Source: Methanocalculus alkaliphilus (GTDB lineage Archaea > Halobacteriota > Methanomicrobia > Methanomicrobiales > Methanocorpusculaceae). From it: 64,000 bases of DNA. Location of the stretch: NCBI RefSeq assembly GCF_024170505.1, contig NZ_JALJYG010000003.1:62001-126000 (forward strand), given 5' to 3'. The translations under genes and the position numbers were made by a program. Below are positions 43,045-45,924 of the stretch, in pieces. Every line of letters begins with the position of its first letter. Position 1 is the stretch's first letter. The notes beneath the pieces were generated by a model. It saw only the letters and a program-made list of their open reading frames with translations, searched no databases and had not been told where the DNA came from.

Positions 43045-43617
43045 ATGTCGATATCGATCAGATGCCCTGGGTGTGAAGAGGAGACCGACCACGATATCGT
43101 TCGTGATGGATCACCCGCCACGGTACGCTGCTGTGAGTGTGATCACATACACCGCATCACCATTACAATCCCTGCCATACGTGAGATCCCTGCCATCGTC
43201 AGTAGCGAGGCTGAGTCAAAGAAAGGAGTCATAGAGCTTACAGATGATGAGCTGGTGAACGTCGGGGACACATTTGTCGCTGATGTCGGAGACGATATCT
43301 TTGGTGTCGAGGTGACCGGAATCGAGATCGGCCCTGCAAGGCGGAGGAGGGCTTCTGTAAAGGATATCACCTGCCTCTGGACGAGGGTGGTCGATACGGT
43401 CATTATCCGGGCATCACTCCATAAAGGGGCGACAACGATACCACTCTACGAAGCCGTGGATGGAGAGACTGCCTATACCATCGGGGAGATCACCGATGTC
43501 GGAGGACGTCAGTTCCGTGTAACCCGGATAAAAATGAGGGATGGACAGGTTATCAGAAAGCCGGGCTCCTATGCCGAGGCACGTTTTATCAAACGAATCT
43601 ATGGTGAACGGTCATGA
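43045..43617 (+). CDS. HVO_0476-family zinc-finger protein
   Basis: A 190-residue protein. The N-terminus is a zinc ribbon: CPGCEEETDHDIVR followed by CCECDHIHRI. A beta-rich region follows (about 65-190: LTDDELVNVGDTFVADVGDD ... AYTIGEITDVGGRQFRVTRIK). The family is conserved in euryarchaea and has no known function. It ends only 18 nt before the hairpin of the IsrB-bearing element, so the insertion lies immediately downstream of its stop. Confidence 0.85.
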   Translation: MSISIRCPGCEEETDHDIVRDGSPATVRCCECDHIHRITITIPAIREIPAIVSSEAESKKGVIELTDDELVNVGDTFVADVGDDIFGVEVTGIEIGPARRRRASVKDITCLWTRVVDTVIIRASLHKGATTIPLYEAVDGETAYTIGEITDVGGRQFRVTRIKMRDGQVIRKPGSYAEARFIKRIYGERS

Positions 43618-43634
43618 TCGAATCAGGCAGGAAA

Positions 43635-43654
43635 CTCACGACTTTAGTCGTGAG
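43635..43654. repeat. Right-end hairpin of the element
   Basis: CTCACGAC-TTTA-GTCGTGAG is a perfect 8-bp stem with a 4-nt loop. It lies at the 3' end of the isrB-like gene and encodes its last codons and stop (LSRLKS, stop). The loop TTTA is shared with the left-end hairpin while the stem sequence differs, as expected for TnpA recognition structures. Confidence 0.8.
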
Positions 43655-44691
43655 AGGAATGCCGATTGCCTGGTGTCGGTATAGTGTGTTGTTCTCCATG
43701 CTATTCTGGTCAGGATTGTGCAGTCTGTTGGTTTAGCAGATTGCGTTAATCGTTTTCCTGTTCTGAAATGGTGTAATGAGAGTCGTTCTTTGATTGAACC
43801 TCCTATATAGGATAAACCGTGTTTGAAATGGTTGACTAATGTTCCACGGATTAGGTTCAGAGAGATCGTTCCTCCATAAGGTTTTCTGATCCCTCCTGTT
43901 TCGGGTTGGAGTCGGTGGAGTTGACGACGATGGAACCTGATCGGAGTCCAATAAAATAAACCTCGTTCTGTTGGTTGTTTGGCTCCGGAAACGTCTGCCG
44001 CCATAACCCAGGCATCTACTGCATGAGAGGAGAAGACAGGTTTCTTCTTCTGAGAGGTCTTTCTGAGGTTGAATCGATCCCGGAGGTCTTTGGTTTCATA
44101 TCCGGTACGAAGATGGAGATCGAGGTTGAGAGATCGGATTGTACGGTAAAACCATTGTTTACCCACCTCTAAAGGAGAGAAGTTGGAGTTCCATTGTTTG
44201 CAGTTCTTTTTGGTTACTGCGGCAATATCTTCGACAGCAACATCTGTCAGAGGGATGATCTTTTGGAGCTGTGTTACAATCCGGAGTTTGGCGTTCCATC
44301 TGGCGCGAGTACTCGGCGGGATGGAGGATCTGTTTTTGAGACGGTTTCTGAATCGTGCAGGACGCCTCCAACAATGACGGTATCTTCTGGATCTTCGCAT
44401 GGTTCGACGGGTTTCAACCGCCTTTTCGACATGTTTTGGTGTTTCGGACATGCCGTTTAGAACGGTTTCTTGTGTACCAACAATAGACCATCCTTCAAAG
44501 GAACTACCCGGATCAATACCGATGACGAGAGGTTGGTTGTCTGGATTGACCTGATAGGTGAGGATGATGCAGAATATACCGAGTTTGTTCCAATAGGGTC
44601 TGGCTTTACCTTGTTTCAGTAAGAGCCGGGCTCTTGTCGGTGTTGTCGGCATAAGAGGTGTTTTGTTAGTGTCTAATACAGGGATTCGCAT
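43636..44691 (-). CDS. isrB: IsrB-like RNA-guided nickase (PLMP/RRXRR domain, split RuvC, no HNH)
   Basis: A 351-residue protein. Residues 1-46 are the PLMP/RRXRR domain (VLDTNKTPLMPTTPTRARLLL, then GKARPYW). RuvC-I is IGIDPGSS with Asp60; an Arg-rich bridge helix covers about 94-121 (RRTMRRSRRYR); RuvC-II is VAVEDIAAV with Glu154; RuvC-III is SSHAVDAW with His223 and Asp226. Only 68 residues lie between Glu154 and His223, too few for an HNH domain. This separates IsrB from IscB and Cas9. Characterised IsrB nicks the non-target strand, guided by an omega RNA. GGAGGTAA precedes the ATG. The C-terminus (about 100 residues, basic) would hold the TAM- and RNA-binding part. The RuvC residues look intact. 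Confidence 0.85.
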   Translation of the reverse strand: MRIPVLDTNKTPLMPTTPTRARLLLKQGKARPYWNKLGIFCIILTYQVNPDNQPLVIGIDPGSSFEGWSIVGTQETVLNGMSETPKHVEKAVETRRTMRRSRRYRHCWRRPARFRNRLKNRSSIPPSTRARWNAKLRIVTQLQKIIPLTDVAVEDIAAVTKKNCKQWNSNFSPLEVGKQWFYRTIRSLNLDLHLRTGYETKDLRDRFNLRKTSQKKKPVFSSHAVDAWVMAADVSGAKQPTERGLFYWTPIRFHRRQLHRLQPETGGIRKPYGGTISLNLIRGTLVNHFKHGLSYIGGSIKERLSLHHFRTGKRLTQSAKPTDCTILTRIAWRTTHYTDTRQSAFLSRLKS

Positions 44692-44926
44692 GAGGGATTA
44701 CCTCCATCCGGTTAAACCGGAGTTACATGTCTCTTCGGAGTGGCAAGACAGGCTTAGTATCTGAAAAGATACGTCGGATTCGGCGTGTCCGGAAGAGGGC
44801 AGAACTAGAGAAACATTCTGCCGTTCTTGTAGCCCGTAATGCTGCTGCATATCTGAATATGCCTCCTAGTCTAACTGTTTAGTCTCGCGTAGCCGTTTGC
44901 AAGCCCATGACTTTAGTCATGGGTGG
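44692..44926 (-). ncRNA. Putative omega RNA (HEARO-like) of the IsrB-like nuclease
   Basis: The 222 nt between the isrB start and the thioredoxin stop hold no gene, but on the minus strand form several strong hairpins: the left-end stem (44904-44923), GCATAT/ATATGC (44847-44862), GGCAGAA/TTCTGCC (44798-44822), GTATCT/AGATAC (44757-44772) and CCGGTT/AACCGG (44708-44720). In IscB and IsrB loci the omega RNA is encoded in exactly this place, 5' of the gene, with the guide taken from the DNA outside the left end. No covariance search was possible; the call rests on position, size and predicted pairing. Confidence 0.65.
44904..44923. repeat. Left-end hairpin of the element
   Basis: CCCATGAC-TTTA-GTCATGGG, a perfect 8-bp stem with the same TTTA loop as the other end. 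The stop codon of the thioredoxin-like gene (TAA, 44913-44915) lies in this loop region. Confidence 0.8.
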
Positions 44927-45188
44927 TTGACAGATATTTTTTAACAAGTTCCTCGAACTCTTCGCGATGAAGGACACCCTCAACCTTTTCGACGACGGCC
45001 CCATCTGAAATGATGACCGTCGTCGGTGTCACCCTGAGTTGGTACTCACTAATATATTCAGGGTTTGATTTTGCATTAATCGATTCGATGGGGACTGATA
45101 ACGCCTCTTCAATCTCTGTATTGATCGGTTCCTGTTCAAGACACCCCATACACCCATCCTGGTAAAAGGAGAGAATCTTCACAACCAT
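44913..45188 (-). CDS. Thioredoxin-fold protein whose 3' end runs into the mobile element
   Basis: A 91-residue thioredoxin-like protein. The redox motif is CMGC (Cys13, Cys16) and the cis-Pro loop is RVTPTTVI; the order strand-CxxC-helix-strand-helix-strand fits the fold. The ATG at 45188 gives the normal size. The last codons (STTHD) and the TAA stop lie in the left end of the IS element, so the original C-terminus was probably slightly different. It lies 40 nt after the FKBP-like gene, with which it may be co-transcribed, suggesting a protein-folding or redox unit. Confidence 0.8.
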   Translation of the reverse strand: MVVKILSFYQDGCMGCLEQEPINTEIEEALSVPIESINAKSNPEYISEYQLRVTPTTVIISDGAVVEKVEGVLHREEFEELVKKYLSTTHD

Positions 45189-45228
45189 GATCGTGATTCT
45201 TCGTGGTGAAGATGAAAAAAGTATTGGT

Positions 45229-45924
45229 TTATGATACCGCTCTGACAGAGTGGATCGTGACAACGGCATGTGAATAGCCATACCTGAGCGTGATCGTATC
45301 ATCGGTCATGGCCATCACATAGGCAAACCGTGTCTTTACATCAGGCTCAACGCCATCAAGTGCAATCGTTGGAGAGTCGGCAAATCCGAGCGGAACCAGT
45401 TCACCGATCTGTACCGTCTCAATGTCTCCGCCTATTTCTTTAAACTGGTCGAAGGTCATCTCCCTGGCAAGCGGGGAATCGGGATCCTCAAAAGTGAAGG
45501 GGACGGTGATCCGGTCACGTTCACGATGTCCGATGACTGAATCGGCTATCGCCTTAAATTCTGTCCTGAAGAGTGCAAACGGAGAGATCCCAGCATAGCG
45601 ATGCGGAATAGCGATGGTATCATCTGCCGGAGCATACCCTGCAGTCACCTGGATCGGCCCGGAGAGGTAGACAAAAATATTATCCCTCTCTGCATCTGCC
45701 ATAACCTGATCGGATGTGGTCAGAACAGGTATTCCATCATCATTGTATAGTGTATAATCGATAACAACGCCATCGCCCGGCTGGATAGCACGAAGCCCGC
45801 CAATCCATCCGGTCCCAAGGAGAGAGAGCGCCATCATTGCAGCAAAAAGAACAGCGATGGATATCGCTCCAATCTTCGTCCAGTTGACAGGCTCTGCCTT
45901 CTTTTTCTTCTTCTGCTGTGCCAT
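45229..45924 (-). CDS. Membrane-anchored FKBP-type peptidyl-prolyl isomerase-like protein
   Basis: A 231-residue protein. A Lys-rich N-terminus (AQQKKKKKAEPVNW) precedes one membrane helix (about residues 21-41), placing the rest outside the cell. The extracellular part begins like archaeal FKBPs (IQPGDGVVIDYTLYNDDGIPVLTTSD) and continues with an IF-like insert and RYGYSHAVVTIHSVRAV. Key aromatic residues of the FKBP active site are not all evident, so isomerase activity is uncertain. The ATG at 45924 is preferred over the frame nine codons longer. Confidence 0.6.
   Translation of the reverse strand: MAQQKKKKKAEPVNWTKIGAISIAVLFAAMMALSLLGTGWIGGLRAIQPGDGVVIDYTLYNDDGIPVLTTSDQVMADAERDNIFVYLSGPIQVTAGYAPADDTIAIPHRYAGISPFALFRTEFKAIADSVIGHRERDRITVPFTFEDPDSPLAREMTFDQFKEIGGDIETVQIGELVPLGFADSPTIALDGVEPDVKTRFAYVMAMTDDTITLRYGYSHAVVTIHSVRAVS

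What the first reader, a model, noticed from the sequence alone, without database searches (positions are those of the whole stretch)
43625..44930. Archaeal IsrB-like RNA-guided nuclease in an IS200/IS605-type element
The 351-residue protein has the PLMP/RRXRR N-terminus, an Arg-rich bridge helix and all three RuvC motifs (Asp60, Glu154, His223/Asp226), but no HNH domain between RuvC-II and RuvC-III. That is the IsrB layout, a compact ancestor-like relative of IscB and Cas9 shown to nick DNA under RNA guidance. Matching hairpins at both ends and an intact frame suggest a recent, possibly working insertion in a methanogen, where such systems are little studied. The element lacks its own transposase.
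Basis: partly seen in the sequence, partly recalled or inferred. Interest (0 to 1): 0.88.

Follow-up and report, generated by a model that had tools for sequence, protein, structure and literature searches.

The report
Mobile RNA-guided DNA-nicking enzyme in methanogen
A small jumping DNA element in a methane-making archaeon carries an intact gene for IsrB, a compact relative of Cas9, together with its guide RNA; it is a clear new member of a known family, and comparison with relatives shows that these elements usually land exactly on the start codon of a host gene.

Summary
The ORF at 43636-44691(-) encodes an intact IsrB. Its best solved-structure match is DtIsrB (E 2.6e-50; fold E 1.9e-28). 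RuvC residues D60, E154, H223 and D226 are invariant in 28 relatives, and there is no HNH domain. A HEARO/omegaRNA lies directly upstream (44931-44723, E 3.4e-12). The element is 1316 bp (43616-44931). A 95% identical second copy and three empty-site comparisons in the genus (Methanocalculus) fix its ends: the guide-side flank abuts GTCAAC, and the other end abuts a retained ATGA, matching DtIsrB's NTGA TAM. The TAM-reading Arg and Gln are kept.

No TnpA was found in this genome. The end hairpins and 4-nt guides (GAAA/TCAT, CAAG/TGAC) obey the IS608 TnpA pairing rule and are shared with TnpB elements in the same genome, so trans-mobilisation is likely. dN/dS of 0.12-0.16 argues against decay.

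Archaeal IsrB is already reported, so this is a new member of a known kind. The unexpected part: in 36 of 54 mapped IsrB insertions the TAM's own NTG opens an ORF of at least 80 codons, mostly at real start codons of co-oriented genes. Host promoters may therefore drive the omegaRNA.

The parts
43616..44931 (-). whole non-autonomous IS200/IS605-type element (1316 bp), isrB strand minus
   Evidence: 95% identical second copy aligns over exactly these ends plus ATGA; site empty in 6 congeners
43612..43615 (-). retained target tetranucleotide: ATGA on the isrB strand (TAM), TCAT on the TnpA strand
   Evidence: ATGA present at all six empty orthologous sites; matches the DtIsrB NTGA TAM (PMC9581776)
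43636..44691 (-). isrB, 351 aa: PLMP, RuvC-I (D60), Arg-rich bridge helix, RuvC-II (E154), short linker, RuvC-III (H223, D226), C-terminal TAM-interacting domain (R314, Q317)
44723..44931 (-). HEARO / omegaRNA scaffold
   Evidence: Rfam RF02033 full-length match 1-211, 63.9 bits, E 3.4e-12, below the gathering score of 83; the other four archaeal copies match too; 17 pairs with two-sided changes
44932..44951 (-). predicted guide, GAACTTGTTAAAAAATATCT, taken from the 3' end of the upstream thioredoxin-like gene
   Evidence: immediately 5' of the omegaRNA scaffold; position inferred from DtIsrB
43635..43654 (+). TnpA left-end hairpin CTCACGACT-TT-AGTCGTGAG
43631..43634 (+). left-end guide tetranucleotide GAAA, predicted to pair with target TCAT
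   Evidence: rule from IS608 (PMC5934647)
44904..44923 (+). TnpA right-end hairpin CCCATGACT-TT-AGTCATGGG (also encodes the first omegaRNA stem-loop)
44900..44903 (+). right-end guide tetranucleotide CAAG, predicted to pair with cleavage site TGAC
44928..44931 (+). right-end cleavage tetranucleotide TGAC, last bases of the element
44692..44722 (-). leader between the omegaRNA match and isrB, with terminal hairpin and Shine-Dalgarno-like GGAGG, as described for DtIsrB SL7
   Evidence: sequence; comparison with PMC9581776
44913..45302 (-). host thioredoxin-like gene whose stop codon was displaced; it now ends in the element (tail STTHD)

Best explanation
This is a recently inserted, non-autonomous IS200/IS605-type element that encodes the RNA-guided nickase IsrB and its omegaRNA. 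A transcript starting in the host flank carries the left flank (about 20 nt) as guide, the HEARO scaffold and the isrB message. IsrB binds it and nicks the non-target strand of DNA that matches guide + NTGA, which is the empty insertion site. The nick at an empty sister site would favour copying the element back by recombination, so IsrB helps the element persist. Movement itself is done by a Y1 TnpA supplied in trans, which reads the two terminal hairpins and their 4-nt guides. Shown here: protein family, omegaRNA, ends, empty sites, TAM-like motif, shared TnpA-type ends, purifying selection. Inferred from DtIsrB and IS608: guide use, nicking, retention by recombination, trans-mobilisation.
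For: DtIsrB is the best PDB match by sequence and by fold. RuvC residues are invariant and there is no HNH. The tree groups it with HNH-less IsrB, 100/100. A HEARO RNA lies directly upstream in all five archaeal copies of this clade. Both ends are exact in two copies, and sites 1 and 3 are empty in every congener where the locus was found (6 and 6), with clean joins at ATGA; site 2 is empty in the closest congener with a clean join, and six more distant ones lack the element there. All five archaeal copies abut ATGA, and Arg/Gln of the TAM reader are kept as GKRLTQ (PMC9581776). The hairpin-foot tetranucleotide changes with the cleavage site: TCAT/GAAA, TCAC/GAAG, CCAT/GGGA, TGAC/CAAG, TGAA/CAAT. 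dN/dS is 0.12-0.16 between copies. The same genome's TnpB elements share both ends.
Against: No expression or activity data. The HEARO score is below Rfam's gathering score. No TnpA gene is found in this assembly, though it is a draft of 37 contigs. Three of 15 left-end guide calls with perfect hairpins do not fit the pairing rule, probably because the wrong hairpin was picked. The AlphaFold model is weak in the bridge-helix and 255-273 regions.
Confidence: 0.93

Rival explanations
1. An IscB that lost its HNH domain secondarily in archaea, resembling IsrB by convergence.
For: Related archaea carry many RRXRR proteins of IscB size, so a source for loss exists.
Against: The tree separates it from those longer archaeal proteins with 100/100 support and puts it with DtIsrB and other HNH-less proteins from several phyla. 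The RuvC-II to RuvC-III linker aligns to DtIsrB almost without gaps.
Confidence: 0.03
2. A decayed passenger: the protein and omegaRNA are relics and no longer active.
For: No tnpA in the genome; only two copies.
Against: Both copies are intact, catalytic residues are kept, dN/dS is 0.12-0.16 among three copies, stem pairs show compensatory changes, and insertions are absent from congeners, so they are recent.
Confidence: 0.08
3. A domesticated host regulator in which IsrB with its omegaRNA controls the neighbouring gene.
For: Insertions sit at start codons of host genes far more often than expected.
Against: Insertion sites differ between species and are species-specific. The inserted allele no longer has guide next to TAM, so it is not its own target. 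RuvC is intact.
Confidence: 0.04

Closest known systems
Desulfovirgula thermocuniculi IsrB (DtIsrB, PDB 8dmb) and its omegaRNA
   Same: About 350-aa layout PLMP-RuvC-bridge helix-short linkers-TAM-interacting domain; RuvC residues; HEARO RNA just upstream with 5' guide; NTGA-type target; Arg/Gln TAM readers
   Different: 37% identical over the aligned part; different IsrB subclade; shorter omegaRNA (about 209 nt scaffold match against 284 nt with guide); archaeal host
Poribacterial, cyanobacterial and chloroflexal IsrB elements (L031-L107)
   Same: 41-48% identical proteins; same element ends, RTGR target and omegaRNA position where mapped
   Different: Bacterial hosts, often many copies per genome
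Methanoculleus IsrB elements (L029, L030)
   Same: 70-76% identical proteins, HEARO RNA, ATGA target
   Different: Other insertion sites; other genus
IscB / HEARO ORF
   Same: PLMP, RuvC, bridge helix, HEARO RNA
   Different: IscB has an HNH domain and cuts both strands; none here
IS608-type TnpA ends and TnpB elements of the same genome
   Same: Same terminal hairpins, GATC left border, GTTGAC right border, YCAY target
   Different: TnpB elements encode TnpB on the other strand relative to the ends

Membership tests
IsrB | About 350 aa, PLMP + split RuvC + bridge helix | tested here: met
   fold match
IsrB | No HNH domain between RuvC-II and RuvC-III | tested here: met
   No Pfam HNH hit at E<=10, none in 28 members; short linker as in DtIsrB
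IsrB | RuvC metal-site residues present | tested here: met
   D60, E154, H223, D226 invariant
IsrB | Phylogenetic placement with IsrB rather than IscB | tested here: met
   the DtIsrB row is partial and on a long branch
IsrB | omegaRNA directly upstream | tested here: met
   HEARO full-length match E 3.4e-12, below the curated cut-off; the four other archaeal copies match too
IsrB | NTG(A)-type TAM next to the guide match | tested here: met
   Empty sites show flank + ATGA; genomic inference, not an assay
IsrB | RNA-guided nicking of the non-target strand | not testable with these tools
   Needs biochemistry
IS200/IS605-type mobile element | Subterminal hairpins, no target duplication, insertion 3' of a short target read by a 4-nt guide | tested here: met
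   rule in PMC5934647
IS200/IS605-type mobile element | Own TnpA (autonomous element) | tested here: not met
   No Y1 gene in the element or assembly; non-autonomous
IscB | HNH domain | tested here: not met
   (below the NCBIfam IscB cut-off)
TnpB | C-terminal Cas12f1-like TNB domain, guide on the 3' side | tested here: not met
   No PF07282 hit in this protein; omegaRNA on the 5' side

The most novel reading that the evidence does not exclude
IsrB elements preferentially settle exactly at the start codons of co-oriented host genes. The target RTGR contains the start codon, so the host promoter and leader supply both transcription and the guide segment of the omegaRNA, and the host gene keeps its ATG behind the element. 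This would be promoter capture built into the target motif, explaining how an element whose guide lies outside itself gets its guide RNA made.
Probability: 0.45. Interest if true: 0.6.

Novelty: new member of a known kind. Interest (0 to 1): 0.45.

Why it matters
It gives a clean archaeal IsrB locus with two copies, three empty-site comparisons, a known target motif and a named sister species (Methanocalculus chunghsingensis strain K1F9705b) that also carries it, so IsrB biology could be tested in an archaeon. The comparison also shows TnpB and IsrB elements in one genome sharing the same transposase-type ends while reading the shared target from opposite strands. If the start-codon pattern holds, it answers a simple open question: where the promoter for an omegaRNA whose guide lies outside the element comes from.

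Tried and rejected
Rfam at gathering threshold found nothing; the permissive run found HEARO. NCBIfam IscB hit is below its cut-off, so the protein is not IscB. A TnpA search of the own genome was negative; congeners have TnpA genes, and three of those inspected lie behind related left ends with TTAC targets. Extra solo omegaRNAs in the genome: none beyond the two copies. Viral-contig and plasmid searches gave only relatives below 50% identity, the named plasmid hosts all bacterial. A looser hairpin finder shifted the hairpin feet by one base at the right end, so I rely on the perfect-hairpin calls. My first dereplication of sites was faulty; BLAST then found one duplicate pair, L062/L070, so 53 sites are distinct. 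Whole-genome download was not available. Key older papers (Altae-Tran 2021, Kapitonov 2015, Weinberg 2009) are not held.

Full report
Observation. The ORF at 43636-44691 on the minus strand encodes 351 aa. Pfam gives RRXRR only (E 1e-42, residues 3-158), with nothing else even at E 10. NCBIfam's IscB model matches below its cut-off (129.6 against 175 bits). The best solved structure by sequence is DtIsrB, E 2.6e-50 over residues 2-297; IscB chains follow at 8e-17 or weaker and only over parts of the protein. A profile of relatives aligns over nearly all of DtIsrB (E 1.1e-131; that profile includes a DtIsrB segment, so its E-value is inflated). In a 28-member alignment D60, E154, H223 and D226 are invariant, and none of the 28 members has an HNH match. 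An AlphaFold2 model (mean pLDDT 78) matches DtIsrB first among PDB chains (E 1.9e-28, TM 0.69), then IscB.

Tree. With archaeal and bacterial relatives, the protein forms a clade with a second copy in its own genome, M. chunghsingensis and two Methanoculleus species. That clade lies within a group of ~350-aa HNH-less proteins that also holds DtIsrB, split from the longer archaeal RRXRR proteins (mostly 400-460 aa, IscB size) with 100/100 support. I did not scan those longer proteins one by one for HNH. In a sample of 393 genomes of the phylum, 31 have an RRXRR protein; most are of IscB size, and at least four lineages of archaeal IsrB-size proteins appear (window clade, L126, L127, L129/L131). 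Archaeal presence is not new: Borg elements carry IsrB (PMC12660748), HEARO/IscB systems are reported from bacteria and archaea (PMC9755519), and a 2015 paper on ISC transposons has 'bacterial and archaeal' in its title (cited).

omegaRNA. Rfam HEARO matches 44931-44723 minus, full length, 63.9 bits, E 3.4e-12, below the curated 83 bits. The other four archaeal copies of this clade match at 51-60 bits, and more distant archaeal IsrB-size loci at 53-89 bits. An alignment of the five window-clade RNAs folds with 69 pairs, 17 of which have a sequence with changes on both sides. The hairpin and GGAGG just before the isrB start resemble the DtIsrB SL7/Shine-Dalgarno arrangement (PMC9581776).

Ends and empty sites. 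The genome holds a second copy, 95% identical in protein and DNA. The two align from GTCAACC to GATCATGA over 1320 columns and not beyond. At site 1 all six congeners with the locus lack the element; the flanks join exactly at ATGA, the stop codon of the thioredoxin-like gene. At site 2 the closest congener has a clean empty site; six more distant ones lack the element, but their alignment at the join is looser. At site 3 (in M. chunghsingensis) six congeners, the window's own genome among them, are empty. No duplication occurs, so ATGA belongs to the target. Both Methanoculleus copies also abut ATGA. DtIsrB uses NTGA, works on ATGA, and reads it with R323 and Q326 (PMC9581776). The same R-x-x-Q is present here as GKR314LTQ317. 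The predicted guide of this copy is GAACTTGTTAAAAAATATCT.

Mobility. No Y1 TnpA is found in the assembly, whose completeness is given as 99.89% but which is in 37 contigs. On the TnpA strand, the 4 nt before each terminal hairpin agree with the cleavage site as in IS608, where GL AAAG pairs with TTAC (PMC5934647): GAAA with TCAT and CAAG with TGAC here. Across relatives with perfect hairpins the pairs change together: TCAC with GAAG three times, CCAT with GGGA, TGAA with CAAT; three of 15 left-end calls do not fit. The TnpB elements L005-L008 of the same genome share both ends (YCAY|GATC...CAGGCAGNAA-hairpin and CAAG-hairpin-GGTAGTTGAC|). Congeners carry TnpA behind a related left end with TTAC targets. 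Trans-mobilisation by such a TnpA is the simplest reading; it is inferred. dN/dS among the three Methanocalculus copies is 0.12-0.16.

Start-codon pattern. I mapped both ends for 54 elements (5 archaeal, 49 bacterial). The target was ATGA 44, ATGG 6 and GTGA 4 times; the pattern used to find the bacterial ends required RTGR, so this composition is partly by construction. Starting at the target's own NTG, 36 of 54 have an open frame of at least 80 codons, against 0 and 2 of 54 in the other two frames. Other RTGR sites in the flanks do so in 20.5%. Requiring also an in-frame stop within 40 codons upstream in the joined flanks, 32 of 54 (59%) qualify against 6.4% of control sites (p about 1e-24), and Shine-Dalgarno-like motifs occur in 33% against 8%. 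With crude gene calls and only viable (intergenic or start) sites as control, 27 of 42 are starts against 21% expected (p about 2e-9). Sliding the position gives 31 of 53 at offset 0 and at most 3 at any other offset; offset 0 always has an RTG, so the control sites above are the fairer yardstick. Nineteen of 20 downstream proteins have Pfam domains, many complete from the first residues, such as DnaN 1-120 and OTCase 3-143. The window's own copy is one of the exceptions: its ATGA is a stop codon. Most sites are poribacterial, so host breadth is limited. Part of the pattern is surely survival: an insertion at a start codon spares the gene. But since the guide lies outside the element, its transcript must begin in the flank, and a co-oriented start codon lies just behind a promoter. 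That second step is inference. From memory and unchecked (paper not held), the 2009 description of HEARO RNAs already noted integration at ATGA or GTGA, so the target preference itself may be known; I found no held paper on the start-codon pattern.

Verdict. A real, intact, recently inserted archaeal IsrB element; a new member of a known kind.

Noticed in passing
54 IsrB loci: window, L002, L028-L107 (subset with mapped ends): Elements abut RTGR targets whose NTG is the start codon of a co-oriented host gene in over half of cases (36/54 open for >=80 codons, 0 and 2 in the other frames); host promoter and leader may supply omegaRNA transcription and guide.
   Followed up: partly
L005, L006, L007, L008 (own genome, contigs C3, C4, C5, C9): TnpB elements of about 1226 bp share both end sequences and hairpins with the IsrB element but encode TnpB on the opposite strand relative to the ends, so the two nucleases would read the same target class from opposite strands.
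   Followed up: partly
L155, L156, L157 (congeners): TnpA genes behind left ends TTAC|GATC...AAAG-hairpin, candidate helpers or relatives of the missing transposase.
   Followed up: partly
window 44913-45302: The insertion replaced the stop codon of the thioredoxin-like gene, adding the tail STTHD; the convergent gene at 43045-43617 now takes its stop from the target/element junction.
   Followed up: yes
L008 2649-3201: Tandem repeat of about 66 bp beside a TnpB element.
   Followed up: no
L127 (G233), L126 (G123), L129 (G152), L131 (G326): Further archaeal IsrB-size proteins with HEARO RNAs in other subclades, one grouping with DtIsrB, suggesting several entries of IsrB into archaea.
   Followed up: partly
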